Shown here: positions 3-13,834 of the stretch, piece by piece
Position numbering within the stretch: the stretch's first letter is position 1
Layout of the letters: every line of letters starts with the position of its first letter
From: Tomitella gaofuii
Lineage (GTDB): Bacteria > Actinomycetota > Actinomycetes > Mycobacteriales > Mycobacteriaceae
Direction of reading: 5' to 3'
DNA: 64,000 bases
Assembly: GCF_014126825.1 (NCBI RefSeq)
Contig: NZ_CP059900.1
Coordinates: 2,370,954 to 2,434,953, forward strand
Translations under genes and position numbers: made by a program
Notes under the pieces: model-generated
What the model was told of the DNA's origin: nothing
The model's database searches: none
The model's input: only the letters and a program-made list of their open reading frames with translations

Positions 3-422
3 GCGGCCACCGAAGCCCTCGACCGGCTGGCGGACTCCGAGCTCGGCCACCGCTATCCGAGCACGGTCAAGACGTTCCGCGACGCGTGGGAACGGTTCGT
101 CCCGTTCCTGGCGTTCCCGCCGGAGTTGCGCAGGGTCATCTACACCACGAACAGCATCGAATCGTTGAACTACCAGCTCCGCAAGGTCACCAAGAACCGC
201 GGACACTTCCCCAACGACCAGGCGGTGATGAAGCTGCTCTGGCTCGCGATCGCGAACATCGAGGACAAGCGGGCCCGTCAGCGGGCAAAGGAACGCGGCC
301 TGCCCTCGGCCGAACGACGGGCCCCAGGACGCCTCGTCGAAGGCGCCGTCACCACGAACTGGAAACGTGCCCTCGCCCAGCTTTCCCTGATCTATCCCGA
401 ACGCATCAACCAGCACCTCTAA
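3..422 (+). CDS. IS256-family (Mutator-type) transposase, C-terminal part, cut by window start
   Basis: The frame is open from the window edge and codes for about 139 residues of the C-terminal part of a DDE transposase of the IS256/Mutator class. The stretch RRVIYTTNSIESLNYQLRK followed by the NRGHFPND region is the conserved C-terminal block of this family and carries its catalytic-glutamate region (the E of NSIESLN). The stop is TAA at 420-422. A probable terminal inverted repeat follows within 20-45 bases, so the element ends normally on this side. Whether the N-terminal half outside the window is intact cannot be seen. The assignment is confident; activity is unknown. Confidence 0.92.
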   Translation, partial: AATEALDRLADSELGHRYPSTVKTFRDAWERFVPFLAFPPELRRVIYTTNSIESLNYQLRKVTKNRGHFPNDQAVMKLLWLAIANIEDKRARQRAKERGLPSAERRAPGRLVEGAVTTNWKRALAQLSLIYPERINQHL

Positions 423-437
423 CTCGAACACCTGAAC

Positions 438-464
438 GACTTACACAAACATCTTGACAGGCTC
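438..464. repeat. Probable right terminal inverted repeat of the IS256-type element
   Basis: Just downstream of the transposase stop, the complement reads GAGCCTGTCAAGATGTTTGT followed by GTAAGTC. This resembles the ends of actinobacterial IS256-type elements. The partner end is outside the window, so the match cannot be confirmed, and the exact last base (about 464) is inferred from the family pattern. Confidence 0.6.
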
Positions 465-596
465 TCCGTCCTCGGGCCGCGGGGATCACGTTAGTGGATG
501 AGGCCGGGTGACGAGAACGACGACACCGCGTCCGCGCGAGGGCACGGCGCGATCCGATCGCCCCACTGCGCACCCGCCGTCTGGTGTAATCCCCGA

Positions 597-1511
597 ATGG
601 CCACTGTCGACCCCCACTACATCGCGGCATCGCTGCCCGCGTGCATGACAGCCATCGCACGGCACACCCCCGAGCCCGTCCGTGAACATTGGTGCGACGT
701 CGACGGCGTGCGCTACCCGGCCAAACAGGCCTATCAGGTCCTCACGGGACTCCCCCGCTCCCAGTTCACGTCGCACCAAGCACTTCGCCAGCTCAGGTCG
801 GTCGGATTCATCGCCAGCGAATACCGCCGCCGTGCCCCCGAGCAGAACCACGGCGACAGCGCACCGAGCGCCTTCACGATCCTGTCGGGGTATCTCGCCG
901 AACACGCGCTGACCGACCAGATCGGCGACGCGGAGGAGGCGCTTCTCGGCGCTGACGCGGAATCGACCAGGCAGATCGTCGAGGACTACCGGTTCAGCGA
1001 GGATCTCCTCGACGCCGCGCTCGAAGTCCGCACTCAGGTGGGACGCCTCAACGCCGTCATCCACGCCACCTGCATCGCCCGCGTACTGCCGCTCATCCTC
1101 GAGCCGGGCGAGACGATCTCCGCACGTCCTTCGCTGGCTGCAGGGAATGACCCGGGCCGGCCGTTCGATCTGGAGACCGACCGCCGGGTCGCCGAGTTCA
1201 AGATCTCCCAGTGGAAGGGCGCCGACGCGATGCGCAAGCGCGCAGCCTTTAAGGACCTGGTCCATCTTGCCCTCGACGAGTCCGGGCGTCGCCCCGAGCT
1301 CTACATCGTCGGCCCCGCGCCCGAGCGATTCCTGTCCGCCTCCGCTACTACAGCGGAATGGGCGCTCAACCGCGCGGGACCACGGATCAGGCAGCGGTTC
1401 CGCGAAGCCTATGGAGACCCGGCGGAGATGACCGTCGCGGATTTCCGGCGAGGGCCCGCGGCGCACGTCGCCATCGTCGACATGTCGTCACTGCTGCCGT
1501 CGCTGGCGTGA
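597..1511 (+). CDS. Hypothetical protein with a candidate PD-(D/E)XK nuclease motif
   Basis: A 304-aa protein. I chose the ATG at 597 because the reading before it looks non-coding; an in-frame upstream ATG at 498 would add 33 residues. I do not recognise the full-length family. Near residues 190-205 it has PFDLETDRRVAEFKIS, which fits the D...(D/E)xK pattern of PD-(D/E)XK nucleases: D in PFD, then EFK on the next strand. A later strand reads PELYIVGP. No signal peptide or membrane segment is visible. The gene sits between an IS end and a convergent helicase operon, a typical place for defence genes. The nuclease idea is an inference from one motif; it could equally be a non-catalytic relative. 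Confidence 0.55.
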   Translation: MATVDPHYIAASLPACMTAIARHTPEPVREHWCDVDGVRYPAKQAYQVLTGLPRSQFTSHQALRQLRSVGFIASEYRRRAPEQNHGDSAPSAFTILSGYLAEHALTDQIGDAEEALLGADAESTRQIVEDYRFSEDLLDAALEVRTQVGRLNAVIHATCIARVLPLILEPGETISARPSLAAGNDPGRPFDLETDRRVAEFKISQWKGADAMRKRAAFKDLVHLALDESGRRPELYIVGPAPERFLSASATTAEWALNRAGPRIRQRFREAYGDPAEMTVADFRRGPAAHVAIVDMSSLLPSLA

Positions 1512-1708
1512 CCGCGTCTGGACTGCCGCCCACGGGAGCTGACGCAGGTGACGGCAGCGTGGTTGTACGAAATCCGGGGCGATTCATTTTCCTGGAAACG
1601 GACGTCACCAAGGCCCGTGCCCAGGGGCCACCACAGACAAAATCTCATTGCAGATCAGGGCCAGGCAGAACTGCCTGACGTCGGCCCGGGCGGCGTGCCC
1701 GCCGTCTC

Positions 1709-2938
1709 TCAGCGCTTCGCGCGGCCTGTGCAATCCTCCAACGGCGTCATAGACCTATCGTGAACGCGCCACAGCGCCCAGCCGTCGCCGGGAGTCGGAG
1801 TTCCCGGTGCGATCCGCTCGATCACCGCCGCTGCCGCAGCCGTCGGGTCGGAGAACACGTACCCTTTCAGCTCACCTTTCGAGATGCGCACTCCACCGGT
1901 CGCGGGATCGAACACGGCGATGGTGCGGAAGCCGTCGTGGTCCAGAAAGACCCGCAACTGGTCCCCCACCGCCGCGCTTGCAGGCATCCCGACAGGTTGT
2001 GCCGAAGTGGGTCCCGACGACTCCGCCCTCGCCTTGACCGGTGACGGCGATGCGTGCGCCGACCGTGGCAGTTGCCTTGCAGTCGGTTTCGCGACGCGCC
2101 TGGTGGGCTTCGACGCGTTCGCAGCGGCGGCCTCGCGCGGCGGCTCCCACTTCAGTGTGTCCTTCAGCCGGCGGTAGCGCTTGTGTGTCAGCAACTTCCT
2201 GAGGCCGACGTCGAGCTCCGCATCCGAAGTCGATCGCCTCCGAGGGTCCTTCTGCGCTTTCTCGTAGCGCCGGACAAGCTTCCGGAGGGGATCGTGCCCT
2301 GTGGCCTTGTACGCGCGAGACCCGCCGATGGCTACGGTCGTAGTTCCGACGGTTTTCCAGGTGATGTCTCCGTCTGCGGTGCAGAGCTCGATGTTCCTCT
2401 CCAGTTCCGCCCTGTCCCCCGGGTCGGAGAGGTGCTCTGAGGCCAGGATGGCCTGTACGATCTCGTCCTTGGTCGCGATCAACTCTCGTGCACCGAGCGC
2501 CATACGCAGGGCGGCCTCGATCCGCCCTTCCTTCCAGACAGCACGTTCCTCAGGCTCTCGCACATCGAGCTCGCCCACTAGACGTATCGATCCGGAGAAT
2601 TGCTCGCGCTCCATGAGCTCGTTGATGAGAATGTCCTCATCATCACGCTCGAACAGCACCGCATCCATCGGCGCCGGAGAGGCACTATCGTCCGGCTCGG
2701 TTCCCTCGACCACGATCCGCACGAGGACGTGCTCGTCGCCGTCGACAACCGCGGCGGTCACTTCGGTCACATTGGCGAGACGCGCACGCCGCGGTGGACC
2801 GTGCCCGCCTGCTCCCGCATCGACGAGCCACTCACGCGCAATCCAGACGTGTTCGTCGTCGAGGATGATCTGGCCGTCGACCCCCCAGAACCACTGGACA
2901 TCCTCCCCAGCGCTTTCCGTACGCGAGTGCCTGCCCAC
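1709..2938 (-). CDS. Protein with C-terminal RAMA/DUF4357-like domain, third gene of helicase operon
   Basis: A 409-aa protein starting at GTG (2936-2938), only 3 bases after the stop of the upstream SF2 helicase gene, so translation is probably coupled. The first ~270 residues are not recognised. They are acidic at the start and then contain a basic stretch around residues 215-260. A Pro/Ala/Ser-rich linker (about 270-325) leads to an ~80-residue C-terminal domain. There, KGYVFSDPTAAAAAVIERIA and GWALWRV resemble the RAMA/DUF4357 module (shape: F-S-PSAAA...GW..W) found in proteins linked to restriction enzymes and DNA methylases. The role may be DNA-substrate recognition for the two helicases. 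The domain call rests on pattern recognition, not a search. Confidence 0.6.
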   Translation of the reverse strand: MGRHSRTESAGEDVQWFWGVDGQIILDDEHVWIAREWLVDAGAGGHGPPRRARLANVTEVTAAVVDGDEHVLVRIVVEGTEPDDSASPAPMDAVLFERDDEDILINELMEREQFSGSIRLVGELDVREPEERAVWKEGRIEAALRMALGARELIATKDEIVQAILASEHLSDPGDRAELERNIELCTADGDITWKTVGTTTVAIGGSRAYKATGHDPLRKLVRRYEKAQKDPRRRSTSDAELDVGLRKLLTHKRYRRLKDTLKWEPPREAAAANASKPTRRVAKPTARQLPRSAHASPSPVKARAESSGPTSAQPVGMPASAAVGDQLRVFLDHDGFRTIAVFDPATGGVRISKGELKGYVFSDPTAAAAAVIERIAPGTPTPGDGWALWRVHDRSMTPLEDCTGRAKR

Positions 2939-2941
2939 CGG

Positions 2942-4660
2942 TCACACCCCGCTCCCGCACAACGCCGCCAGCACCGGCGCAGTATCCGGCCCGCCCAGCC
3001 TGGTCAATGCCGTCGATTCATGCCACTGTACGTCGATCTCTCCGACGCGCAGGCGTTTTGCCACATCCATGGCCGACAGCGCTGTCCGTCCACCGACCCC
3101 GAACCGAAGCGCCATGATGCTCGCCTGGAGCGGTTCCAGCACGGACAAGCAGGCGAGCACCGTGTCCGCAGTCGCCACCTCACCGCTCGCCGCAGCTCGC
3201 GCGAACATTCCGGCCACGTCCACGGGCTCTTCCTCCGCACGCTCGGGAGGCGCCGGCGACGCGGGTTCCCCGGCGGGACCCCGGATGCTCTCGGTCGTAC
3301 TTCCCTTAGTGCGTCCCGATCCGCCGCCCGTGACCGCGGACGTCTCCTCGAGCTTCAGCCACTCGGCGAGGCGGGGCCCGGCTTCCTCCGCGGTGCACGT
3401 CACGATGTCGTCGGCGATCGCCATCAGCTCGCTAAGGAACACTTCGTGCGCTCCGCCCTCCGGGTCCTCCGTGCTGCCGCGCATGTACATGACCACGAAA
3501 GATGCGTGCCGCCCGTCCGCCTTGGGCCGGATGATGCGCCCCATGCGCTGGATCATCTGCCGCTTCGACTTGCTGCCCGCAAGAATGATCCCCACATCGG
3601 CCTCGGGGACGTCCACGCCCTCATCGAGCACCCGCGGGGCGACGAGCGTGGACAGCACGCCGTTCTTGAACGCATCGAGCAGCTCCGCACGCTCTCTGCG
3701 CTTCAGGTCGCTGGTGTACGGCGCCGCATTGACGTTCGCGTCCGTGAGGACGCCCGCCGCCGCATACGCCGACTCCTTGGTCTCGGAGAAGACGATGGTG
3801 CGGCCCGCCGCCGCAAGGACCTCTCCGATCGGTTCCAGCGCGTCGAGCTTGCCTTCGGAGTTGGCGAGCACGGCCCTGCGACGGCTGAAAGCATTGAGGT
3901 ACTTGCGCGCCGACCACGTCGCTTGCTCTGCGCCGCCGTCCTTGAACTCCTGCACGTCCTGCATGAACGAACCGAACGGCTCCGCCCGGCACCCGAACTG
4001 CGTAATGAGCTTGTGCCGTTCGGCCCGCGCCACTTCATCCCACTCGGAGTACTCCTCCTGCTCGTGCGCAAGGAAATCGACGCTGACGAGCATCACTCGC
4101 ACAGGTGCGAGGATCCCGTCCTGCCGTCCCCGTCGATAGTCGCAGCCGGGGATGACGTCCTCGAAGTACGGCCGCAGGTGCATCGCGACGCCCTCGTCCG
4201 GCCGCTCGAAGGTCGCGGTGAGCCCGAGGCGTTCGGTATAGGCGTCGTCAAGCACAGCTGCGAATCCGCCGGCACCATACCGGTGCACCTCGTCCGCGAT
4301 GACGAGGGTCTCGCCGGCGGGCCGCCGGAACGTCGGGGTGATCGCCGAGTTCACGATCGTTACCAGCACCTGCACCTGGGGGAAGGCGTCGTGGTGCCCC
4401 GCACCCCGTCGACCCACCGGGACCCCCGGAAGCGCCCTGCGGAACGCGTCGTGCCACTGCTCGAGAAGGTCCACACTCGGGACCACCACCAGCACCTTCA
4501 GACCGCGGCCCACGGCGTCCGCCGCGGCGGCGATCCCTAGCGTCGTCTTGCCGGTTCCGGTCACTGCCTCGATCACCGCACGCCGGCCGGCAACCTCCCA
4601 TTTGCTCAACGCATCCCGCTGCCATGCACGCAGCTCGATCCCTTGCAGCAATGCGCTCAT
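2942..4660 (-). CDS. SF2 (DEAD/DEAH-type) helicase with sigma-region-4-like C-terminal tail
   Basis: A 572-aa superfamily 2 helicase. I chose the ATG at 4660 because it forms an ATGA overlap with the stop of the upstream giant helicase gene; an ATG at 4672 is also in frame. Visible motifs are a Q-like LRAWQRDAL (residues 10-18), Walker A TGTGKTT (34-40), DEVH (123-126), LTAT (147-150) and motif VI QRMGRIIRP (about 368-377). This is the UvsW/XPB-like core architecture. The last ~60 residues (LRFGV, then MDVAKRLRV and WHESTALTRLG) look like the region-4 helix-turn-helix of a sigma factor, an unusual attachment suggesting DNA binding. It lies in an operon with the SF1 helicase upstream and the RAMA-like protein downstream. 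Confidence 0.88.
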   Translation of the reverse strand: MSALLQGIELRAWQRDALSKWEVAGRRAVIEAVTGTGKTTLGIAAAADAVGRGLKVLVVVPSVDLLEQWHDAFRRALPGVPVGRRGAGHHDAFPQVQVLVTIVNSAITPTFRRPAGETLVIADEVHRYGAGGFAAVLDDAYTERLGLTATFERPDEGVAMHLRPYFEDVIPGCDYRRGRQDGILAPVRVMLVSVDFLAHEQEEYSEWDEVARAERHKLITQFGCRAEPFGSFMQDVQEFKDGGAEQATWSARKYLNAFSRRRAVLANSEGKLDALEPIGEVLAAAGRTIVFSETKESAYAAAGVLTDANVNAAPYTSDLKRRERAELLDAFKNGVLSTLVAPRVLDEGVDVPEADVGIILAGSKSKRQMIQRMGRIIRPKADGRHASFVVMYMRGSTEDPEGGAHEVFLSELMAIADDIVTCTAEEAGPRLAEWLKLEETSAVTGGGSGRTKGSTTESIRGPAGEPASPAPPERAEEEPVDVAGMFARAAASGEVATADTVLACLSVLEPLQASIMALRFGVGGRTALSAMDVAKRLRVGEIDVQWHESTALTRLGGPDTAPVLAALCGSGV

Positions 4661-7600
4661 GCCCTCACCCACTCGAAGCCGGTGTCACTGTTCTTGGGCA
4701 CCAATGCACGTTCGCCGACCAGTGTGCCCAGCACTTCATACAGATTCCCCTGCCCCATACGGGTGATGGTCTTCGCCCGCGCCATCGTGAGCGGCGCGAT
4801 GTCCGCGGCCGTGAGCAAGAGCTCCCGTGCTGTCGCTGCGTCCGCCGGCGGCAGCGACGCGATCAGACGAGCAGGGTCGGGGATTTCCGGATCGACAGGC
4901 TCTTCCGGGGCGCCCGGGTGCTCGTCTCGTTCGGGCGCATCCACGGCGGATTCGGCTTCCGCCGGGCCGTCGAGCCGCTCGTCGTCACGCCGGTCGAGTT
5001 CTCCGGAGCGGAACAGCTTCTCGAGGATCTCCGTCGCGAGTCCGACATCGATGCCGATCCACCGGCAGATCTGCCGCGGCGTCACGTCCCCGGACTGTGC
5101 CAGGCGCAGAACCCGCTCCTCCAAGGCGGCGTCACTGAAAGGCAGGTCCGCAGGTTCGACTATCTCCCAGCCGCCGGACGACTCCGGCCCCGCGGAAGCC
5201 TCCGGGGGGATCGCAGGCTCGGCGACCGGGTCGTTCTCCGGGCCCGGAAGCACACCGGACGGGGCCTCCGGCTCCGGCGATTGCTCAGGGCCGGGCGCAC
5301 TGTCGGACTCTTCGTCGGCGCGCGCAAGCGCATCCCACTCAGTTGGCTCCCCCGACGGCTCGGCCAGCGTTGCCGCATCTTCCAGATCTGCAGCGTCGTC
5401 CAGCGTCGTTGACTCGACCGACGAAAGCTCCTCGGCACGTTCCGGAACATCGTGGTCACGTGCACTCGCACCGTGCGGCGTGCTGGTCTCGGCGTCCGGT
5501 GCCATCGGGCGGATGCCGAGGGCTTCGAGCCGGGACCGCAAGGCGCCGAGCACGGCGGCCGGGTCGATGACGTAGGCGAATTCACTGACGTGGAAGAGTT
5601 GCCACCCGCACCGGATCAGCTCGCGTTGCAGCGCGAGTTCGTTCGCGTAGTTCGCTCGACCAGACCAGGTGTCGTCGGCGCACACGACGCCGAGACGTGA
5701 CCGCGCGCCCTCCACGACCAGCGACAAGGTGTATCCGAGCGCGTCGACCTCCGGCGTCACCACGAAGCCGTCATCGACGAGCGAACGGTAGATCTCCTGC
5801 ACGAACAGCGCCCGGAACGGGTCGACGAGCTCGTCGCCGGGCACCTCGAGCCGCCGATCCGAAGTTTCCTCGACGCCTTCCGCGGTCCGGTAGCTGTATT
5901 CGAGCAGGCGCCGGCGCATGTCGTCGGGGTGGGTGAGCGCATCGCGGGAGACCGAATGGAACACCCACATCTGATCCTTCGCCCGCGATGCGGCGACGTT
6001 GTACCGCTGGACGTACTCCTCCCTGGTCAGCGCCGTGATGCGCCGACCGACGCCGGGCGCCGCGACCATAGACAGGAACATGACGTCGCGTTCGGAGCCT
6101 TGGAAGTCTGGTGCGTCGCCGCACCGAAGGTCGCGCCGCGTCCATTCCTCCGGCGCCACGTCCTCCAAGAGCAGCTTTTCGATGACCTTGGCCTGCGCCG
6201 TGCCCTGCAGCGAGATAACTCCCATAGACATGCCGTCGTAACGCGGGTCCTCGATGCACTCCACCACTGTCCGCGCGATCGCCTCGGCTTCGGCCCGGTT
6301 GACCTTGTTCGTCGTGCCCCGGGTGACGCCGTCCGGTACGTGCACGGGCACCACCGGCGGCAGCCGGTCCTGCCCGTACTGCCGCACCGGCACCAGCGAC
6401 ACCCCGTGCGGCGCGTAGGCGATCTCGTTGGAGAACCCGATGATCTCGGGCATGCACCGGCGGTGCTCAGTGAGCGTGATCCTTTTGCCGAAGAGCATGT
6501 TCGCCTCGTCGAACAGGCTCATGGTGGGCGTCTGCCAGGTGCTTCGGTACCGGTTGTTCGGGATGTACTGTCCGGCCAGATCGCGCAGCTGCTGCTGATT
6601 AGTACCCACGGCCGACGGCGAGACTTGCCGATCATCACCGATGACGACGATCTTCGGAGCAAGGTACTGGAGGAACACCGACTCGAGCCCTGCCTGGGAC
6701 GCCTCGTCCACCATCACCACATCGAACATGTCGGGTTCGATGCGTAACTGCTCGCTGATCCGGTAGATCGGCATGATCCACACCGGCACGGCGGGACGAC
6801 ACCGGTCCATGGTCCGCCGGATGTCCGCTCGCATCTGGGGCGCATAGGTTCCGGTGCCCTTGCCCAGCTTGCGGACGAGCGTCACATACTCGGACAGGTC
6901 CGCACGCGCCGTGCCCGTCAGACGCTCGGGGGACACGGCGTGCCGCCACGCCCTCTCGGCCGCCACGACCTCCACCGCGCGCCGGATCTTGTCGTCGAGC
7001 CGGTTCACCTTGGCCTGCATAGCGTTGACGTCGGCCGCCTCACGTGAGGAGATCCATGAGGCGGTGGCGCCCCAGCGCCACGCCTCCGGCAGGGCCGCCA
7101 GACGCTCGTCCCACACAGGATCGTGCGACGACGCGGCCACCGCCTCAGCAAGGTCGTGCGCCGCCTCGTCGAACCTCGACCGCAGCAGGTCCCGTCGGCC
7201 TGCCCGTCCGCGCGCGTCGTGCAGGTGTCGCAGCCGAGCGTGTTCCTCGGCGTAGGCGCGGGCATCGCGCTCCTCCACTGCCTCGAGCATCGCGTCGACG
7301 CACCGCCACTCGTCCGCGTCGGCACCTGATTCGACGACCGAACGCTGGTCGACCCGGGCAGCGAACTCTTCGATCGCCTCGATCGCAGAGGCGACCTCCT
7401 CGTCCGCCTCCACTGCCTCGACCATCCGCGCGTACCCGCGAACAGCATCGAGGTCGCTCCACTCGGGGCCGCGAATGCCCCACTGCATCAGGCGCGCGTT
7501 CTCCGCGGCCAGCAGCCTCCCCAGGTCGAGCACCTGCTCCATCTGCGAAGCCTCGGTCACGTGCCACTGCAGCCGCTCCTGCAGCGTGTCCTCCTCAGGG

Positions 7601-10005
7601 ATACTCACCGCCGCCGGCCAGCCCTTGTCCAGCGCGTCGAGCGTTGCCTCGGCGTCCGACTGCACCAGGAACAAGCGCAGCTGCTCCCGCGTCGTCGGCG
7701 GCAGCGAGTCCACCCGGACCTCGTCGAAGAGCCGCTGCGACTCCTTGATGACCTTCGAGGTGAACCTGCGGATCTTTGGTGACCCGTCGGCGGTCGTCTT
7801 GATCTCATTACCCGCGGCGAGATGCGCTTCAAGCGCGTTCGCGGCGGCGATGAGCGGGCCGCGGTCCGTCCCCGTCACGGTCACCTCGTGCAGCAGGCCC
7901 AACTCGTCGACCATCCCCTGACACCGGGTGATCAGCGCGTCGATATTCTTCGCCCGGGATTCCCAAATGCTCGCCCGCCCGGAGAGGACGTCGGCAACTG
8001 CCTCGCCGATCCAGGATTCCTGCTTGCGGCTCATCGCGTCGATGCGGTTGGCCGCTGCGTCCATGCGATCAAGCAAGAGCCGACGGTCCGCATCGACGAG
8101 TTCGCGCACTGCGGCGGCCGTCGGGTCGCTCAGGGCGTCCGCCATGTCCGCGCGCCGATCCACCGCGTCTGTTTCGCGTCGACACAGTTCGATGAGTTCA
8201 TCCGGCACGGGAAGCGATTCGATGTCGGCGATCGCGGGCGCGGCGCCGACGGCTCCTACTTCCAGTTCGGGATCGCGCAAGTACTCCAGCCACTCCACCG
8301 CTTCCGTGCCGGTGAGCGGCGCCTCCGCGTGGACTGGCATCGGCCCGTACTCGGCGATCCACCCGAGTTCCGGGCGTTCCACATCCAGCGCACGTGCGAT
8401 CTGCGCGTAGGTTCCGTCGTAGCCGCCGCGTTGACGCGCACGGACCTCGCGCTTGCGGGCGTCCACCAGGCCGGCCTGCACCTGGTTCCGTTGCTTCCCC
8501 AGACTCTCGATCTCTTCGAGCGCCCTGTCGATCACCCGTGCCGAGGCGGCCTCGTCGTACTCCGACGCGCGCATGGAAATACCGTCGACCGCCAGCTTGA
8601 GGTCGGACATCGCCCCGCGATCGCGCCCCACGACGGCCACACTGAGCGGCTTGATCGCGTCGGGGAGCTTCTGCCGGACCTCCTCGAGCGCGCGGTCGGT
8701 CTGCGCGGTCACGAGGACACGCTTGCCCTGGGCGAGCAGGTGCGACAGCAGCGCCGCCGCCGTATGAGTCTTGCCGGTTCCCGGCGGCCCCTGCACCAGC
8801 GTCTGCGGACGATCGTCGACGTTGCTGACGACGGCGAGCTGCCTCTCGTTGACGGGAAGCGGAAGGAAAGTCTCATCGCCCACACGGACCAGGGCGCCCG
8901 GGGTGTCGTCAGGCTCCGAGGAGCGGGACGCGTCGGGGTCGATGAGCGGCACGATGCCGGAGGGGACCGTGCCGGAATCCCGCACCTGCCCCGCGATCTC
9001 GTGGAATATGTCGACCAGGCCCTGCTTGCTGCGCTTCCGGAAGACCAGTGCCGGAGCGAAGGCGATCTGTGCGTACCGTGCAGCGGCAGGCGCATCGTCA
9101 GTGTCGCGGTAGGTGCCCGAGGTGTCGATGTTGTTCACGATCCGGCGGCACAGCTCACCCACCGCCGACGGATCCAGCAGACTCCCGCCGAAGTCCCGCA
9201 CGCTCTCACGCAACTGGTGGATCGCCGACGAATTCTGCACCACCCCCGGGTCGAGCATGTCCATCTCGAACGACACCGCGTCGACGCTTTCCGACTGCTG
9301 CACCCGAAGACAACCAGCAACATCGTCATAGTCCACCGACGCGGAGACAGTGAGCATGTGACGGCGCACCACGGGGTGGTCTTCCGGCTGCCACGCCAAC
9401 AGGCCCACCGCGAGGCACAGTTCGAACTCCTGCGCCCTCGTCGCGGCGGTGCGTCCCAGCGCGAACACGTCCTTGAACAACTCGCGGGCGGGCCGGTCGT
9501 GCCGTTCGCCTTCGGCCCACGAGTGCCACGTCTGGAGCCACGCGTCGAACTCCTCCGCGACCTCGGGGAAGTCTTCGAGCGAGGCCGTCTCGACGGTATT
9601 GTCCGCCGTCTCCGGCTGCTCACCGTGCGCGAGGCGGGCGGGAATCCTCGTGCGGAGACGGGGAGCCGAGTCAGGGTCGTCGCACGCGGTCTCGAGCCAC
9701 CTCGACACCGTCTCCGGCGGGGCGGGGGCCTCCGACTGTGGAACGCGTTCAATGGTGAGAAACGGTTGCTCCGCGGCGTCGTTGTGTTCGACGTCGACGC
9801 CGCTTCGGACCACGGCGGGGTGGTCGGGGAGTTTGTCGAACCATAGGACCGTCTGTCCGTCGCCTGAGTAGGAGTCCACGGAACGCACCGACTGTGTTTT
9901 CAGTTCCTGAACGCGACGAAGGTAGTCGAACAGGTTCACCGCCCGATCCGCACGGTCGTGTACCGTGTTCGCCCTGTTGACAGCCTCCGCACGCGGCTCG
10001 ACCAC
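4657..10005 (-). CDS. Giant SF1 (Upf1/DNA2-like) helicase with degenerate Vsr/DUF559-like domain
   Basis: About 1782 aa if GTG 10005 is used (AGAAGGG lies just upstream); ATG 10038 gives 1793 aa. The frame stays open upstream to 11013 but there overlaps relics on the other strand. Motifs are Walker A GPPGTGKTH (residues ~406-414), a ~680-residue insertion rich in helices, motif II VDEASQ (~1096-1101), GDDRQVSPSA, LTEHRRC, and the C-terminal QGSERD and NVAASRAKD motifs of AAA_12-type SF1 helicases. A Vsr/DUF559-like fold follows (~1405-1500), but the expected D and E residues are S and V. Then come an acidic linker and a winged-helix-like tail. It is the first gene of a three-gene operon with ATGA coupling. 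A defence role is inferred from context. Confidence 0.85.
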   Translation of the reverse strand: MVEPRAEAVNRANTVHDRADRAVNLFDYLRRVQELKTQSVRSVDSYSGDGQTVLWFDKLPDHPAVVRSGVDVEHNDAAEQPFLTIERVPQSEAPAPPETVSRWLETACDDPDSAPRLRTRIPARLAHGEQPETADNTVETASLEDFPEVAEEFDAWLQTWHSWAEGERHDRPARELFKDVFALGRTAATRAQEFELCLAVGLLAWQPEDHPVVRRHMLTVSASVDYDDVAGCLRVQQSESVDAVSFEMDMLDPGVVQNSSAIHQLRESVRDFGGSLLDPSAVGELCRRIVNNIDTSGTYRDTDDAPAAARYAQIAFAPALVFRKRSKQGLVDIFHEIAGQVRDSGTVPSGIVPLIDPDASRSSEPDDTPGALVRVGDETFLPLPVNERQLAVVSNVDDRPQTLVQGPPGTGKTHTAAALLSHLLAQGKRVLVTAQTDRALEEVRQKLPDAIKPLSVAVVGRDRGAMSDLKLAVDGISMRASEYDEAASARVIDRALEEIESLGKQRNQVQAGLVDARKREVRARQRGGYDGTYAQIARALDVERPELGWIAEYGPMPVHAEAPLTGTEAVEWLEYLRDPELEVGAVGAAPAIADIESLPVPDELIELCRRETDAVDRRADMADALSDPTAAAVRELVDADRRLLLDRMDAAANRIDAMSRKQESWIGEAVADVLSGRASIWESRAKNIDALITRCQGMVDELGLLHEVTVTGTDRGPLIAAANALEAHLAAGNEIKTTADGSPKIRRFTSKVIKESQRLFDEVRVDSLPPTTREQLRLFLVQSDAEATLDALDKGWPAAVSIPEEDTLQERLQWHVTEASQMEQVLDLGRLLAAENARLMQWGIRGPEWSDLDAVRGYARMVEAVEADEEVASAIEAIEEFAARVDQRSVVESGADADEWRCVDAMLEAVEERDARAYAEEHARLRHLHDARGRAGRRDLLRSRFDEAAHDLAEAVAASSHDPVWDERLAALPEAWRWGATASWISSREAADVNAMQAKVNRLDDKIRRAVEVVAAERAWRHAVSPERLTGTARADLSEYVTLVRKLGKGTGTYAPQMRADIRRTMDRCRPAVPVWIMPIYRISEQLRIEPDMFDVVMVDEASQAGLESVFLQYLAPKIVVIGDDRQVSPSAVGTNQQQLRDLAGQYIPNNRYRSTWQTPTMSLFDEANMLFGKRITLTEHRRCMPEIIGFSNEIAYAPHGVSLVPVRQYGQDRLPPVVPVHVPDGVTRGTTNKVNRAEAEAIARTVVECIEDPRYDGMSMGVISLQGTAQAKVIEKLLLEDVAPEEWTRRDLRCGDAPDFQGSERDVMFLSMVAAPGVGRRITALTREEYVQRYNVAASRAKDQMWVFHSVSRDALTHPDDMRRRLLEYSYRTAEGVEETSDRRLEVPGDELVDPFRALFVQEIYRSLVDDGFVVTPEVDALGYTLSLVVEGARSRLGVVCADDTWSGRANYANELALQRELIRCGWQLFHVSEFAYVIDPAAVLGALRSRLEALGIRPMAPDAETSTPHGASARDHDVPERAEELSSVESTTLDDAADLEDAATLAEPSGEPTEWDALARADEESDSAPGPEQSPEPEAPSGVLPGPENDPVAEPAIPPEASAGPESSGGWEIVEPADLPFSDAALEERVLRLAQSGDVTPRQICRWIGIDVGLATEILEKLFRSGELDRRDDERLDGPAEAESAVDAPERDEHPGAPEEPVDPEIPDPARLIASLPPADAATARELLLTAADIAPLTMARAKTITRMGQGNLYEVLGTLVGERALVPKNSDTGFEWVRA

Positions 10006-10174
10006 GTCACCCACCCTTCTGTGTCCGGTTTGCCACATCGTAGGGATGCGCCCCGACACGTTTACTCCCGGCCATGGCGTTGAACGGCCCCGTCGACGTG
10101 ATAGCGGTCTCGGAAAGCACCGGACTGGATAACGTGCATCAACACGGATCTGCAACCTGGCGCTCACGATGTGA

Positions 10175-10419
10175 TAGCAGGCCTTGCCCCCGGTTCTTGG
10201 ACACGCTGAATCCAGAGTCTGCTGGTGGAAGCGAGATGATCGAGAACCATGGCACGGAAGAACTCCTCGGATGAGTTCCGTCGGCAGGCGGTCGAGTTGT
10301 ATGAGTCGACGCCGGGCGCGACGATTCGCGGAGATCGCCGCCGTTCTCGGGGTCGTGCGCGGCTCGTTTACGAACTGGGCGGACAAGTACGGCTCCGGGC
10401 CCAAGGCCGCGGCGGACGG
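10175..10419 (+). pseudogene. IS3-family orfA fragment, frameshifted and truncated
   Basis: The reading MARKNSSDEFRRQAVELYES starts at ATG 10249 and continues as the helix-turn-helix EIAAVLGVVRGSFTNWADKYG in another frame, so there is a frameshift near 10325. Together these are the N-terminal half of an IS3-type OrfA (HTH_Tnp_1). The upstream bases (CCCCCGGTTCTTGGACACGC, about 10190-10209) look like the left end of such elements. Homology stops at about 10419, where sequence shared with the RES toxin gene begins. There is no OrfB. It is a dead remnant. Confidence 0.78.
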
Positions 10420-10964
10420 CAGTGCGATCGCCGGTAACCGTTTCTGTGGGAGTCCCCCGACCAGCCGGTCGCCAGGTGGAACGACGAGGAGGACGGCCCC
10501 GAGCAGTATCTGGCCGACACCCCGGATGGCGCCTGGGCCGAATTCCTGCGGCACGAGGAGATCACGGCCGAGGCCGACCTGGCCGGCGTCAGCTGTGCCA
10601 GGTGGGTCGTCGAGATCGGCGAGCCCGTGTTCGCGGAGCCGCAGCTGCCGCGCGAGGTCCTGGTGGGCGGGCCCGTTACCTACCCGGCCTGCCGCAACGA
10701 GGAACGGCGTGTCCGCCGCGAGCACGGCGCACACGCACTGCGTGCTCCGTCCGCCGCGTTGCTGCCGGGGTGCGCCGGGGTTACCGCGTCGAGCTGGGTC
10801 TCCACGTCGGCCCGGAGACGGACGGGCACGTCTTCGTGCTGTTCGGCGCCCGGCCCGACGCGTGCGGCTGGATGATCGTCGACGACGGGCGGCCGCCACG
10901 GTCACTGATCGGCACGGTGAGGCCGCTCGCGGGGTGACACCTGCGGCACGGGTGGCGGCTTCCG
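10417..10964 (+). repeat. Direct repeat copy 1 (RES toxin segment)
   Basis: Starts with CGGCAGTGCGATCGCCGGTA and runs about 30 bases past the toxin stop. It matches 13286-13834 in the same orientation, 2.9 kb away. Confidence 0.85.
10420..10937 (+). pseudogene. Decayed second copy of the RES-domain toxin gene
   Basis: Nearly base-for-base the same as the intact RES toxin gene at 13274-13807, roughly 90% identical by eye. In the equivalent frame, the codon that is TAT in the intact copy is TAA here (about 10435). Farther on, near 10779, a run of five G in the intact copy is four G, shifting the frame. The start codon and the antitoxin gene are absent, replaced by the IS3 fragment. Both lesions are read directly from the sequence, so it cannot make the full toxin. 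An orphan toxin copy is expected to decay once its antitoxin is lost. Confidence 0.9.
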
Positions 10965-11596
10965 CCCCCACCGCCACCGTTGACCTATCGTCGAATCCCG
11001 GCCTGAACACCACCCCGAGTGCCGAACGCGACTGGCACGGCCAGGGCGTCGCCTACACTGCCGCGCCGACCACGCAGCTCGGCCCCCGCGAGGACCTCGA
11101 CCGCGTCAACTCGCCATCCGTCCGCGCGACGATCACCGCAGCCGTGCGCGAGACCGTGGAGGCCGAGGGTCCCATCGAGCTCGACCGCCTGGCACGTAAC
11201 ATCGGCCGCCTGTTCGGGCTGGACCGCGTCCGCGCCAAACCCCGCGAGTTCATCACGGAATGCGTGCCCGCCGAACTCATACACCGTTCCCCACTCGGCG
11301 ACTTCGTGTGGCCGCGGGAGCTCGACCCTGCCCGGTGGCGCGGCTACCGCTCGAGCCTCCCCGGCGACGACAGGCCCATCGCCGACATCGCGCCTGAGGA
11401 GATCGTCAACGCCATGGCCGCGATGTGCCGCAGGCGCGCCCTCGACGACGAATCGCTCCTGCGGGAGACGATGGCGCAGTTCGGCATCGGACGCCTGGGC
11501 GGCAACGTGCGCGAACGGCTCGAGGCGTGCCTGGAACTCGGCGTGCGCAGCGGCAGGCTGATCCGATCTGGGGAAAGCGTGCGCGCGGGGGCGTAA
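10934..11596 (+). pseudogene. Orphan DUF3320 domain, C-terminal relic of a DUF4011-type helicase
   Basis: A frame of about 220 residues, if started at GTG 10934 where it overlaps the stop of the toxin relic. The recognisable part (residues ~60-215) has VEAEGPIELDRLARNIGRLF, GDFVWPRELDP, IADIAPEEIVNAM and a final RERLEACLELGVRSGRLI. This is the pattern of DUF3320, normally the C-terminal domain of very large DUF4011/AAA_11-type helicases. No helicase precedes it here; the preceding sequence belongs to the toxin repeat. I read it as the tail of a lost helicase gene. It may still be translated, but there is no clear RBS. Confidence 0.7.
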
Positions 11597-11603
11597 GGGC
11601 GGA

Positions 11604-11619
11604 AGCCGCTGGCCCCAGC
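11604..11619 (+). terminator. Hairpin after the DUF3320 fragment
   Basis: CCGCTG-GCCC-CAGCGG forms a perfect 6-bp stem with a 4-base loop, 8 bases after the stop at 11596. AACACCTTTTC follows, a weak T-rich tail. The rest of the gap up to 11908 holds no gene I can support. Confidence 0.5.
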
Positions 11620-11908
11620 GGTAACACCTTTTCGCGGCGCTAGGAATTGAGGAACGATTCGCGTCGTCACTGTACGGCGCTGTGACCTGGACTAATACCA
11701 TCGCTTCCACCACTGCACATCGCCTGCCTGCCCGTTCGGCCCTGCCTCCACCACGACAGTGACAACGGGATCGGTTCCTCGATTCATAGCTTCCGGAACC
11801 GGCACCCTGACGCACGCTTGAGCTGTGGATAACCCGGTTAAGTCGCGGGTCACACGCGGTATGGTGACCGCGAGCGGGGAGGCTCACCAGAACCGCACGG
11901 GGGAAAAC

Positions 11909-12658
11909 ATGACGGACGAGCTGGTCGTCACGCAGGAAGCGATCGACACCATCGAGGGGGCCTACGAGAGAGCGGCAGACGAGTTCCGCTGGCTCCCAAA
12001 CGGATTTGCACGAACCTACGGCCCCGAACCGTGGGGAACGCTGCCGTCGCTGCTCCAACTCCAACGCTTCTACGAAGACTCGGCCATGGGTGAACAAAAC
12101 TCGTGCGTCGCCCGCCTCGGCCAATACGCCGACGCTGCCGCCCGCTTCGCAGAATGGGTCCGAGCCGGCGGCGAGGCAGTTTTCCGCGCAGACTACGACA
12201 CCGGCAGCTATGACGGAAACGACGCCGACTTCGCAGTGCTGTCACGCCCCTCTCAGCCGGGGAACGGGTCGATAAATGGGTCCATCACCTCCTCGGCATC
12301 CAGGGCCCCGTCTCCAGCACCACAGTTGCCGGGCACTTCACCGAAGTCGAACTCGTCACCTCCGGACGCGCACGCCAGGATTGCCACGTCGTTGTCCGGG
12401 TCGATTACGGCTTCCTGGATATCCAAGGCGGCCCACTCGGAAAACTCGCCCCCTCCTACCCCCGCGACTGCGACGCCGTCCTCACCTTCGCCGACATCCT
12501 CACCCGCGAGGTCGACGTGCGCTGGCAGCCGACAGGGTGACATGCGACCGACAGAGACCAGCCGCGCAGGCGCGTCCCATCGAGGCAGGCCTCAGCAGGT
12601 CGCCGCGCACCTCTACCGAACCGGACTACAATCGGAAATTGGATGGTCTCCGTTGTGA
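11909..12658 (+). pseudogene. Small alpha-helical protein, paralogue of 37516-37854, running into an out-of-frame fusion
   Basis: The first ~107 codons (11909 to about 12230) match the small protein at 37516-37854: ELVVTQEAIDTI, GAYE.AA, PWGTLPS.LQLQ..YE and AAWVR-type blocks align without gaps. The ATG at 11909 follows a GGGGGAAAAC purine run. After about residue 107 the frame enters sequence that in frame +1 is the tail of a lipoprotein, so the remaining ~140 residues are low-complexity read-through. The stop of the small protein and the start and signal peptide of its lipoprotein partner are deleted. The family resembles small proteins paired with DUF3558 lipoproteins in mycolic-acid actinobacteria; its function is unknown. 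Confidence 0.75.
12250..12540 (+). pseudogene. C-terminal remnant of a DUF3558-like lipoprotein
   Basis: In this frame the sequence reads ERVDKWVHHLLGIQGPV, GRARQDCHVVVRVDYGFLDI, then YPRDCDAVLTFADILTREV and a stop at 12538-12540. The intact lipoprotein at 37851-38411 has HHLLGKSGPV, GRQRQDCHVVATVGYGYLEV and FPRDCDAAQTFTTMLLRHM in the same order. The signal peptide and first ~100 residues are missing, removed by the same deletion that fused the upstream gene. Both conserved cysteines of this part remain. Confidence 0.82.
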
Positions 12659-12674
12659 TCCCGGAAGGAGTCCG

Positions 12675-13277
12675 ATGTCCTCCGCGTTTCTGCTCAATGC
12701 GAGCGAGGCGCGCGTCGCGTACCTCGGGGTTCGCCTCGTCTCGGCCGCACGGCTGCTGGGGCTGGTCCCGAACGACGATGAACGTGGAGTAGACAACGAC
12801 CAGATCGTTGCCGCACTGGCGGCATTCTCCCGGCACGGCGTGGGCCGGGTGCCGTTCGCGCTGCAAGAGCAGTTCACCGCCGCAACCCTGTCGGTCCTGC
12901 TGGAAGAAGCCCTGGCGGCTATGGAGTCCTCGCCGATGCCCCACCTCGAATGGGGGCCGCTGTCGGAGCTTCTCGGAGAGGATCTACTGGCTCGCCTCGT
13001 CGGCGTATCGGCGACCTCGCTGCGCCGATACCGCACGGGCGAGCGGGCCACACCGGATGTGGTCGCCCGCCGACTTCACTTCGTAATGCTGATCACCACC
13101 GACCTCGCCGGCAGCTACAACGATTTCGGCATCCGCCGCTGGTACTCCCGTCCCCGCTCAGCCCTCGGCGGCGAGGCCCCCACCGCGGTGTTCTCGGGAG
13201 ACTGGGGTGAGGACGACGTCCGCGTCCGGCAGGTGCGCGACCTCGCACGCTCGCTTCTCGGCGCGGCCGCATCGTGA
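12675..13277 (+). CDS. Xre/MbcA/ParS-type antitoxin of a RES toxin
   Basis: A 200-aa protein; the start ATG 12675 has a strong GGAAGGAG site 5 bases upstream. Residues ~105-145 (LLARLVGVSATSLRRYRTGE) form the helix-turn-helix region. The C-terminal part (NDFGIRRWYSRPRSALGG, then RDLARSLLGA) has the shape of the MbcA/ParS toxin-binding domain seen in antitoxins of RES toxins. Its stop overlaps the toxin start as GTGA, as expected for a translationally coupled pair. These antitoxins usually repress their own promoter. Family assignment is by pattern and by the neighbouring RES gene. Confidence 0.82.
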   Translation: MSSAFLLNASEARVAYLGVRLVSAARLLGLVPNDDERGVDNDQIVAALAAFSRHGVGRVPFALQEQFTAATLSVLLEEALAAMESSPMPHLEWGPLSELLGEDLLARLVGVSATSLRRYRTGERATPDVVARRLHFVMLITTDLAGSYNDFGIRRWYSRPRSALGGEAPTAVFSGDWGEDDVRVRQVRDLARSLLGAAAS

Positions 13278-13807
13278 TCGCATTCCGGCAGTGCGATCGC
13301 CGGTATCCGTTTCTATGGGAGTCCCCCGACCAGCCGGCCGCCAGATGGAACGCCGAGGAGGACGGCCCCGTGCAGTATCTGGCCGACACCCCGGATGGCG
13401 CCTGGGCCGAATTCCTGCGGTACGAGGAGATCACGGACGAAGCCGACCTGGCCGGCGTCAGTCGCGGCATGTGGGCGGTCGAGATCGACGAGCCCGAGTT
13501 CGCGGAGCCGCAGCTTACGCGTGAAATCTTGGTGGGCGGGCCCGTCACCTACCCGGCCTGCCGAGACGAGGCACGGCGTGTCCGCCGCGAGCAGGGCGCA
13601 CACGCACTGCGTGCTCCGTCCGCCGCGTTGCTGCCGGGGTGCGCCGGGGGTTACCGCGTCGAGCTGGGTCTCCGCGTCGGCCCAGAGACGGACGGGCAGG
13701 TCTTCGTGCTGTTCGGCACCCGACCCGACGCGTGCGGCTGGATGATCGTCGACGACGGGCGCCCGCCCCGGTCACTGATTGGCACGGTGAGACCGCTCGC
13801 AGAGTGA
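13274..13807 (+). CDS. RES-domain toxin (NAD+-degrading type)
   Basis: A 177-aa protein; GTG 13274 overlaps the antitoxin stop. It shows the RES-family layout: an N-terminal arginine region (CDRRYPFLWE), ARWN, then the strand-helix block PVQYLADTPDGAWAEFLR with its conserved glutamate. RES toxins such as MbcT break down cellular NAD+ (phosphorolysis or hydrolysis) and are held inactive by the Xre-type partner encoded just upstream. The frame is intact, unlike the copy at 10420-10937. Chemistry and phosphate dependence cannot be read from sequence. Confidence 0.82.
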   Translation: MIAFRQCDRRYPFLWESPDQPAARWNAEEDGPVQYLADTPDGAWAEFLRYEEITDEADLAGVSRGMWAVEIDEPEFAEPQLTREILVGGPVTYPACRDEARRVRREQGAHALRAPSAALLPGCAGGYRVELGLRVGPETDGQVFVLFGTRPDACGWMIVDDGRPPRSLIGTVRPLAE

Positions 13808-13834
13808 CACGTGCGGTACCGGTGGCGAGCTCCG
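13286..13834 (+). repeat. Direct repeat copy 2 (intact RES toxin segment)
   Basis: Partner of the repeat at 10417-10964. Recombination between the two would remove the Xre antitoxin gene, the DUF3320 fragment and the small-protein/lipoprotein relic. Confidence 0.85.

What the first reader, a model, noticed from the sequence alone, without database searches (positions are those of the whole stretch)
1709..10005. Candidate undescribed defence operon: giant SF1 helicase + SF2 helicase + RAMA-domain protein
Three minus-strand genes are coupled (ATGA overlap, then a 3-base gap) and flanked by IS remnants, a nuclease-like gene and toxin-antitoxin modules. Two helicases from different superfamilies plus a RAMA/DUF4357-like domain, which elsewhere travels with restriction-modification, is a composition I cannot match to a named system such as DISARM, BREX, Zorya, Hachiman or Mokosh. 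The helicase motifs and spacing are seen; the defence role is inferred from context.
Basis: partly seen in the sequence, partly recalled or inferred. Interest (0 to 1): 0.82.

Follow-up and report, generated by a model that had tools for sequence, protein, structure and literature searches.

The report
Chimeric two-helicase defence operon candidate
Three neighbouring bacterial genes encode two helicase-like proteins and a possible DNA-mark reader; relatives of the helicase pair are often found near virus-defence genes, and this copy joins the body of one helicase lineage to the tail of another, hinting at how such systems are put together.

Summary
Coupled minus-strand genes encode a UPF1-like SF1 helicase with a Vsr-type nuclease domain (4657-10005), an XPB/PbeA-like SF2 helicase (2942-4672) and a wHTH/RAMA-like protein (1709-2938, RAMA below cut-off). 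No named system is matched at a curated cut-off. The conserved core is the SF1-SF2 pair: 26 of 80 SF2 loci kept from a pattern scan of 84,980 species have it on one strand. The RAMA-like part is optional (10 of 26 evaluable loci) and fused to the SF2 in three Gordonia. Defence genes lie near many pairs; hand-picked control regions gave few, mostly generic, matches. Defence is inferred, not shown. Two further results: (1) the window SF1 looks like a natural chimera: residues 1-1560 follow a clade not operon-coupled to an SF2, about the last 160 are of the SF2-coupled type, like the SF2 itself, so the tail may be the coupling element; (2) all four conserved acidic positions of its nuclease domain are replaced, so this copy probably does not cut with it.

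The parts
4657..10005 (-). SF1: UPF1-like SF1 helicase with a long insert between the helicase motifs, a Vsr/MTES_1575-type nuclease domain and a C-terminal tail
   Evidence: Pfam; motifs kept; solved relatives UPF1/NAM7; start codon uncertain
5527..5805 (-). MTES_1575-type nuclease domain (SF1 residues 1401-1493); four conserved acidic positions E,D,E,D are V,S,V,A here
   Evidence: Pfam stretch; residues; coordinates computed from residue numbers
4660..5145 (-). SF1 C-terminal tail (about residues 1621-1782) of the SF2-coupled type; proposed coupling element
   Evidence: strongest over the last ~90 residues
2942..4672 (-). SF2: XPB/PbeA-like SF2 helicase, no HKD nuclease hit, weak sigma-70 region 4-like C-terminus (13.4 of 24.1 bits)
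1709..2938 (-). Third protein: beta-rich N-terminus, wHTH, disordered linker, C-terminal RAMA-like domain (sub-threshold)
597..1511 (+). Convergent PD-(D/E)XK-like gene (D-x8-E-x-K); a 54% identical gene lies beside the pair in Rhodococcoides kyotonense; membership in the system unproven
   Evidence: fold search negative

Best explanation
A chromosomal module against phage or other foreign DNA. The SF2 is an XPB-like dsDNA translocase; the RAMA-like/wHTH protein (separate, or fused to the SF2) reads or grips the DNA. The SF2 assembles with the SF1 through the SF1's C-terminal tail and feeds it opened DNA; the UPF1-like SF1 runs on the single strand. In most relatives its Vsr-type domain then cuts. 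In the window copy that domain looks dead, so it would block replication by unwinding or translocation alone, or with a nuclease in trans. Shown: gene coupling, the SF2-RAMA fusion, the mosaic SF1, the residue losses, defence genes nearby. Inferred: complex formation, DNA as substrate, order of events, defence.
For: Pair on one strand in 26 of 80 SF2 loci; 28 pairs in all, 26 of 28 called as overlapping. SF1 and SF2 trees share their main subclades by eye. SF2-RAMA fusion in Gordonia and, for a more distant SF2, on a Tsukamurella plasmid. A tail profile from 31 SF1s (28 of them SF2-coupled, window not included) gives the window tail 49.8 bits, or 60.6 with a longer version, while the profile of its body clade's tails finds nothing in it. 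Sliding profiles switch after residue 1560. Helicase parts of the window SF1 are about as similar to L053 as L053 is to L054, its nuclease and tail are not. SF2's best solved relatives are XPB/RAD25. Defence genes near pairs against controls.
Against: No phage or plasmid assay exists. The RAMA-like part is missing from 16 of 26 evaluable loci. The window nuclease site is lost. The tail match is strong over only about 80 residues, and the 1501-1620 linker fits neither profile. RAMA-bearing L102 gives no listed match to the window tail and L080 and L075 rank low. Three SF1s with SF2-coupled-type bodies but no SF2 in the 18-20 kb fetched (L056-L058) score 15.2, 51.1 and 29.5 bits with the tail profile, which includes them, so the tail is not exclusive to coupled genes. 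The tree program warned of long branches, the window SF1 among them. Against L097 the faster change of the window nuclease is less clear (40.6% against 46.2-50.0%). No complex was modelled.
Confidence: 0.55

Rival explanations
1. The window operon is a decaying relic: an SF1 body recombined into an SF2 operon, its nuclease died, and the island is degenerating among insertion sequences.
For: V,S,V,A in place of E,D,E,D; nuclease and tail less similar to L053 than expected; decayed RES copy and a ProA-type fragment next door; transposase genes on the left.
Against: Three long ORFs are open; SF1 helicase motifs are kept; the SF2 shares the invariant positions of its alignment, in which it is one of six rows; helicase segments 60-63% identical to L053.
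Confidence: 0.2
2. Type IV-like, modification-dependent restriction: the RAMA-like domain recognises modified bases in incoming DNA and the helicases destroy or block it; no self-modification is needed.
For: No methyltransferase among the nine proteins scanned between 126 and 13804; the genome's only strong N6_Mtase hit is about 550 kb away and no N6_N4 hit was found. A GmrSD protein with a RAMA domain over cut-off (62 bits) lies beside the pair in L078.
Against: RAMA score of the third protein is under cut-off and hhalign to GmrSD-RAMA ends gives 15% probability; 16 of 26 evaluable loci have no RAMA-like part.
Confidence: 0.2
3. Phosphorothioation-dependent restriction like PbeABCD.
For: Best SF2 models are PbeA (201 bits) and TIGR04095 (146 bits); in Rhodococcus ruber NBRC 15591 a DndC gene lies about 5 kb downstream of the SF2.
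Against: TIGR04095 cut-off is 600 bits; DndC is missing from 38 of 40 genomes searched, the window's included; no PLD/HKD hit in the SF2.
Confidence: 0.04
4. A DNA repair or recombination pair, not defence.
For: XPB-like and UPF1-like helicases include repair enzymes (roles recalled).
Against: Patchy: the pair is in 6 of 101 relatives' genomes, the window's included; variable flanks with defence genes.
Confidence: 0.08

Closest known systems
SF-I helicase + Vsr REase + two wHTH proteins (MTES_1575; PMC3710099, passages seen)
   Same: SF1 helicase followed by an MTES_1575-type Vsr nuclease; C-terminal wHTH there, wHTH-like tail here (by sequence only)
   Different: MTES_1575 also carries transglutaminase and HEPN domains; no SF2 or RAMA partner in the passages seen
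ProA (NF058533), Hhe (NF042953), Mokosh MkoA/MkoC, PDC-S37
   Same: SF1 helicase core
   Different: 128 of 1500 bits, 75.6 of 2000; Mokosh and PDC-S37 match only in part; that none of them is an SF1+SF2+RAMA-like operon is recalled, not tested
PbeA of PbeABCD (PMC10853773, passages seen)
   Same: SF2 helicase family
   Different: PbeA is an HKD nuclease fused to the SF2; here no HKD hit and no DndC in the genome; PbeBCD themselves were not searched for
CoCoNuT CnuH (PMC11090510, passages seen)
   Same: UPF1-like SF1 with a large helical insert; Type III-B CnuH is fused to a Vsr-like nuclease; inactivated nucleases whose role may be taken over are described there
   Different: CoCoNuTs have McrB and McrC partners; here the partner is an SF2
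XPB/RAD25 helicases (PDB 2fwr, 6p4f, 5tnu)
   Same: Best solved relatives of the SF2 profile
   Different: Repair proteins; no SF1 operon partner known to me (recalled)

Membership tests
ProA (NF058533) | score over 1500 bits | tested here: not met
   128 bits; three coupled relatives 168-181; a true ProA (1831 bits) lies beside an SF2 relative in L085
Hhe (NF042953) | score over 2000 bits | tested here: not met
   75.6 bits
PT restriction SF2 (TIGR04095) | score over 600 bits | tested here: not met
   146 bits; two relatives 138 and 145
PbeABCD / PT systems | PT modification gene DndC in the genome | tested here: not met
   no match in the own genome; 2 of 40 genomes have one
PbeA | HKD nuclease fused to the SF2 | tested here: not met
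   no PLD hit at E up to 1; helicase alignment starts near residue 14
RAMA (PF18755) | score over 35.2 bits | tested here: not met
   15.9-16 bits; GWxxW and AAA motifs match by eye only
REase_MTES_1575 (PF18741) | score over 38.2 bits | tested here: met
   53.3 bits
Active Vsr-type nuclease | conserved acidic positions kept | tested here: not met
   VSVA in the window, EDED in 28 of 41; that these are catalytic is recalled
Mokosh | full MkoA or MkoC architecture with partner | tested here: inconclusive
   partial helicase matches, 89.6 and 97.5 bits; partner not tested
Restriction-modification | operon-linked methyltransferase | tested here: not met
   none among nine proteins of 126-13804; nearest strong N6 hit about 550 kb off. 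The 20 kb left of the window and 14-64 kb were not scanned with Pfam
Anti-phage system | protection in an assay | not testable with these tools
   -

The most novel reading that the evidence does not exclude
An unnamed SF1-SF2 defence system whose SF1 C-terminal tail is a portable coupler: by recombination at a disordered linker, a foreign SF1 helicase body was put on the resident tail-SF2-RAMA-like unit, giving a working hybrid that no longer needs the SF1's own nuclease.
Probability: 0.35. Interest if true: 0.78.

Novelty: new variant of a known kind. Interest (0 to 1): 0.6.

Why it matters
How the parts of multi-helicase defence systems recognise each other is mostly unknown (recalled). A natural mosaic shows which segment travels with the partner and so names a testable coupling element. 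Repeated loss of acidic positions in this nuclease domain (the window; Nocardia E to Q or H; two Rhodococcoides) bears on whether helicases alone can defend.

Tried and rejected
PT dependence: DndC search negative in 38 of 40 genomes. Viral carriage: 6 weak SF2 relatives (25-34% identity) in viral contigs. Own methyltransferase: none linked. Fold searches: the third protein (mean pLDDT 64) ranked wHTH and PH-like chains first but nothing at E 0.001 or better; the 597-1511 protein nothing. Link of the 597-1511 gene to the system: present in 5 of 101 genomes, own included; of the other four, it lies beside the pair in G039, away from any in G044 and G072 (no SF1, SF2 or third-protein match in the 19-20 kb fetched), and only a 66-residue N-terminal match lies 12 kb off in G053; not claimed. 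L154 was dropped from that alignment as only its N-terminus matched. L058_10298 was put into the SF1 set by mistake and left out of trees and counts. L176 duplicated L166 and was dropped from the controls. Flank comparison: 11 of 22 complete loci, drawn at random; 11 control regions chosen by hand; proteins under 150 residues or cut at an end left out of both; for the flanks only 25 of 80 families are shown, so proteins with a hit cannot be counted, and most shown families have one member (DndB/C/D fit one locus, L064). My own gene caller misses genes (third gene of L047/L102, found; the L099 SF2). The tail profiles were built from the rows they score, so only the window's scores and each profile's scores on the other clade are independent. 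No formal test of tree congruence or recombination was run. Papers: the name ProA was not traced; one search returned Raman spectroscopy only.

Full report
OBSERVATION. The three minus-strand genes are there as described. The 1782-residue SF1 passes Pfam cut-offs for AAA_11, AAA_12 and REase_MTES_1575; the 576-residue SF2 for ResIII and Helicase_C; the 409-residue third protein reaches RAMA only weakly (15.9 against 35.2 bits). No NCBIfam model listed is passed: ProA 128 of 1500 bits, Hhe 75.6 of 2000, TIGR04095 146 of 600 (for the SF2 the best 25 of 56 are shown). In PADLOC, which gives no cut-offs here, the best are PDC-S37 (115 bits) for SF1, PbeA (201 bits) for SF2 and nothing for the third protein.

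SURROUNDINGS. The window starts at 2,370,954 of a single 4.35-Mb contig. Left of the trio are a Mutator-type transposase end and, outside the window, genes that read by eye as IS21 and IS30 types. GC is 0.66-0.69 over the trio against 0.71 for 24-64 kb. Right of it are a ProA-type C-terminal fragment (10805-11593, 95 bits), a decayed RES copy and a RES gene with an Xre-like neighbour.

CONSERVATION. In 101 relatives (own genome included) the SF1-SF2 pair occurs in 6: the window's, G019, G028, G039, G041, G053. A pattern scan of 84,980 species with the SF2 alignment gave 188 relatives, of which the best 80 were kept; some of these are the same organisms as the G-handles (for example L062 and G028). 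Of the 80, 26 carry SF1 and SF2 on one strand (Rhodococcus, Rhodococcoides, Gordonia, Williamsia, Speluncibacter), one (L065) is cut before SF1, six (Nocardia, Hoyosella) have the two genes facing each other (in L095 with two genes between), and 47 have no SF1 of these clades, three of them (L085, L108, L115) with only distant SF1 matches of 47-50 bits (L099's SF2). With a second pair in L074 and one more in G039 (L050) there are 28 pairs. 26 are called as overlapping, one has 14 bases between, and one (L102) was mis-started by my caller; in L047, the same genome, it can be read as a 4-base overlap from a GTG. No other gene family, as called, is shared by more than 8 of the 39 loci compared, apart from SF1 and SF2.

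THE THIRD PROTEIN. A profile of its C-terminal domain finds it as a separate downstream gene in L063, L064, L065, L066 and L102, in a longer upstream gene in L062 and L100, and fused to the SF2 in L075, L079 and L080: 10 of 26 evaluable loci (27 less L077, which ends inside the SF2; L072's upstream side is off the contig). Most of these rows were seeds of the profile; L075 (64 bits) was not, and L102 only through L047. Related fusions in more distant SF2s are in Williamsia L086, which has no SF1 nearby, and on a Tsukamurella plasmid. At phylum level the whole third-protein profile matched 2 of 396 genomes, own included. The model shows a beta-rich N-terminus, a wHTH, a disordered linker and a fairly confident C-terminal domain.

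DEFENCE CONTEXT. Near pairs or SF1s: BREX-type helicase, BrxC/D and PglZ (tested in L053; same clusters in L081 and L102, two of them in L068) and GmrSD (tested in L078; same cluster in L089, L100, L122); DpdE and DruE-like (L069), DRT UG5-nitrilase (L068), AbiU (L070), type IV enzyme (L075), HEC-05/PDC-S11 (L063), MzaC-like (L062); AIPR (L071); DndC (L064); an McrBC-family protein beside the uncoupled SF1 of L055. In a comparison of 11 of 22 complete loci with 11 hand-picked control regions, 72 flank proteins matched 80 PADLOC families at 1e-30 (25 shown, among them DndB/C/D, DpdE, DruE, DrmD, HEC-05, PDC-S11, MzaA, type IV; most with one member), and 79 control proteins matched 14 (ten GajB models with at most 4 members, the others RTasHel, SspA, DndA and mad3). 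That the control hits are housekeeping look-alikes is my inference.

THE MOSAIC SF1. The SF1 tree puts the window SF1 with L053-L055 and six Nocardia/Hoyosella SF1s (SH-aLRT 100), apart from the SF1s that are coupled to an SF2. None of those nine is coupled as far as seen: three have no SF2 of this family nearby (L054's contig ends 0.75 kb after its SF1) and six face one. The SF2 tree puts the window SF2 with L102 and L063-L067 (fork support 91), next to L062 and L100, its closest by identity being L100 at 62%. Both trees are short searches, and the program warned of long branches, the window SF1 included. Otherwise the main subclades agree by eye; the second pairs of L074 and G039 have a much more divergent SF2. 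Sliding profiles show the body-clade profile winning up to residue 1560, neither fitting 1501-1620 or 1561-1680, and the SF2-coupled profile winning from 1621 on (43.4 against -3.5 bits in the last segment); the control L053, left out of its own profile, shows no switch, and the last L102 segment scored was uninformative. A profile of the body clade's tails finds 9 of 9 of its own rows (254-310 bits) and nothing in the window; the other tail profile gives the window 49.8 bits and none of those nine a positive score in the 95-residue version, at most 5.1 bits in the longer one. The window tail's six best matches, L063, L062, L064, L079, L066 and L100, all have the RAMA-like part, but RAMA-bearing L080 and L075 rank low and L102 is not listed. 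So tail, SF2 and third gene look like one inherited block under a foreign SF1 body. Three uncoupled SF1s (L056-L058) score 15.2, 51.1 and 29.5 bits, so the tail is not unique to coupled genes.

THE NUCLEASE. At four conserved acidic positions 28 of 41 SF1s have E,D,E,D; the window has V,S,V,A and is the only one with all four changed. The other 12 differ at one or two: the first is A in six, the third Q or H in seven and A in one, the fourth Q in one. Two arginines near the end, R in 40 and 39 of 41, are H and S in the window. Against L053, the window's two helicase segments are 60% and 63% identical where L053 and L054 share 57% and 66%; the nuclease is 42.5% against 67.9% and the tail 19.7% against 41.6%. 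Against L097 the nuclease contrast is weaker: 40.6% for the window, 50.0% and 46.2% for L053 and L054. The domain seems to have lost constraint or changed role while the helicase has not. That these residues are catalytic is recalled knowledge of Vsr/PD-(D/E)XK enzymes.

MECHANISM. The SF2's best solved relatives are XPB/RAD25 proteins, dsDNA translocases by established knowledge; the SF1's are UPF1/NAM7, which run on single strands. A nuclease-bearing UPF1-like SF1 fed by an XPB-like SF2, with a DNA-reading third part attached to the SF2, is the simplest working model. It is inferred. No linked methyltransferase was seen among the proteins scanned and DndC is absent, so self-protection by a dedicated mark is unlikely; SspBCD was not searched.

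NOVELTY. The SF1 architecture was described in 2013 (PMC3710099, passages) and a UPF1-like/Vsr fusion in CoCoNuTs (PMC11090510, passages). PbeA and RAMA readers are described (PMC10853773 and PMC12839542, passages). My searches of the held library (listings, with passages of the papers named) showed no description of this SF1-SF2 pair or its mosaic form; most subscription journals are not held. I rate it a new variant of the known helicase-nuclease kind.

Noticed in passing
10805-11593 +: C-terminal remnant of a ProA-type SF1 (DUF3320; 95 bits to ProA), beside the trio
   Followed up: partly
10417-10964 and 13286-13834: RES toxin gene duplicated (two stretches 91% identical), left copy decayed
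   Followed up: partly
597-1511 +: PD-(D/E)XK-like gene of a rare family (5 of 101 genomes), 54% identical to one next to the pair in Rhodococcoides kyotonense
   Followed up: partly
L085:9734-17543: A true ProA (1831 bits) directly follows an SF2 of this family in Micromonospora trifolii
   Followed up: partly
L117:5164-11332: In an actinomycete MAG the SF2 ends a row of genes of which two are BrxC/D-like, perhaps another system using the same helicase
   Followed up: partly
L142, L145: On Rhodococcus and Tsukamurella plasmids a longer SF2 is divergent from a DUF262 gene; in Tsukamurella it is followed by a gene annotated as Vsr and has a RAMA-like end
   Followed up: partly
L062:13036-14442, L100:13051-14457: A gene beside the pair whose N-terminus resembles that of the RAMA-like protein; in L062 it is a sigma-70 family protein by Pfam
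   Followed up: no
L079:6769-10548: Dynamin-like 1259-residue gene overlapping the SF2-RAMA fusion gene in Gordonia rhizosphera
   Followed up: no
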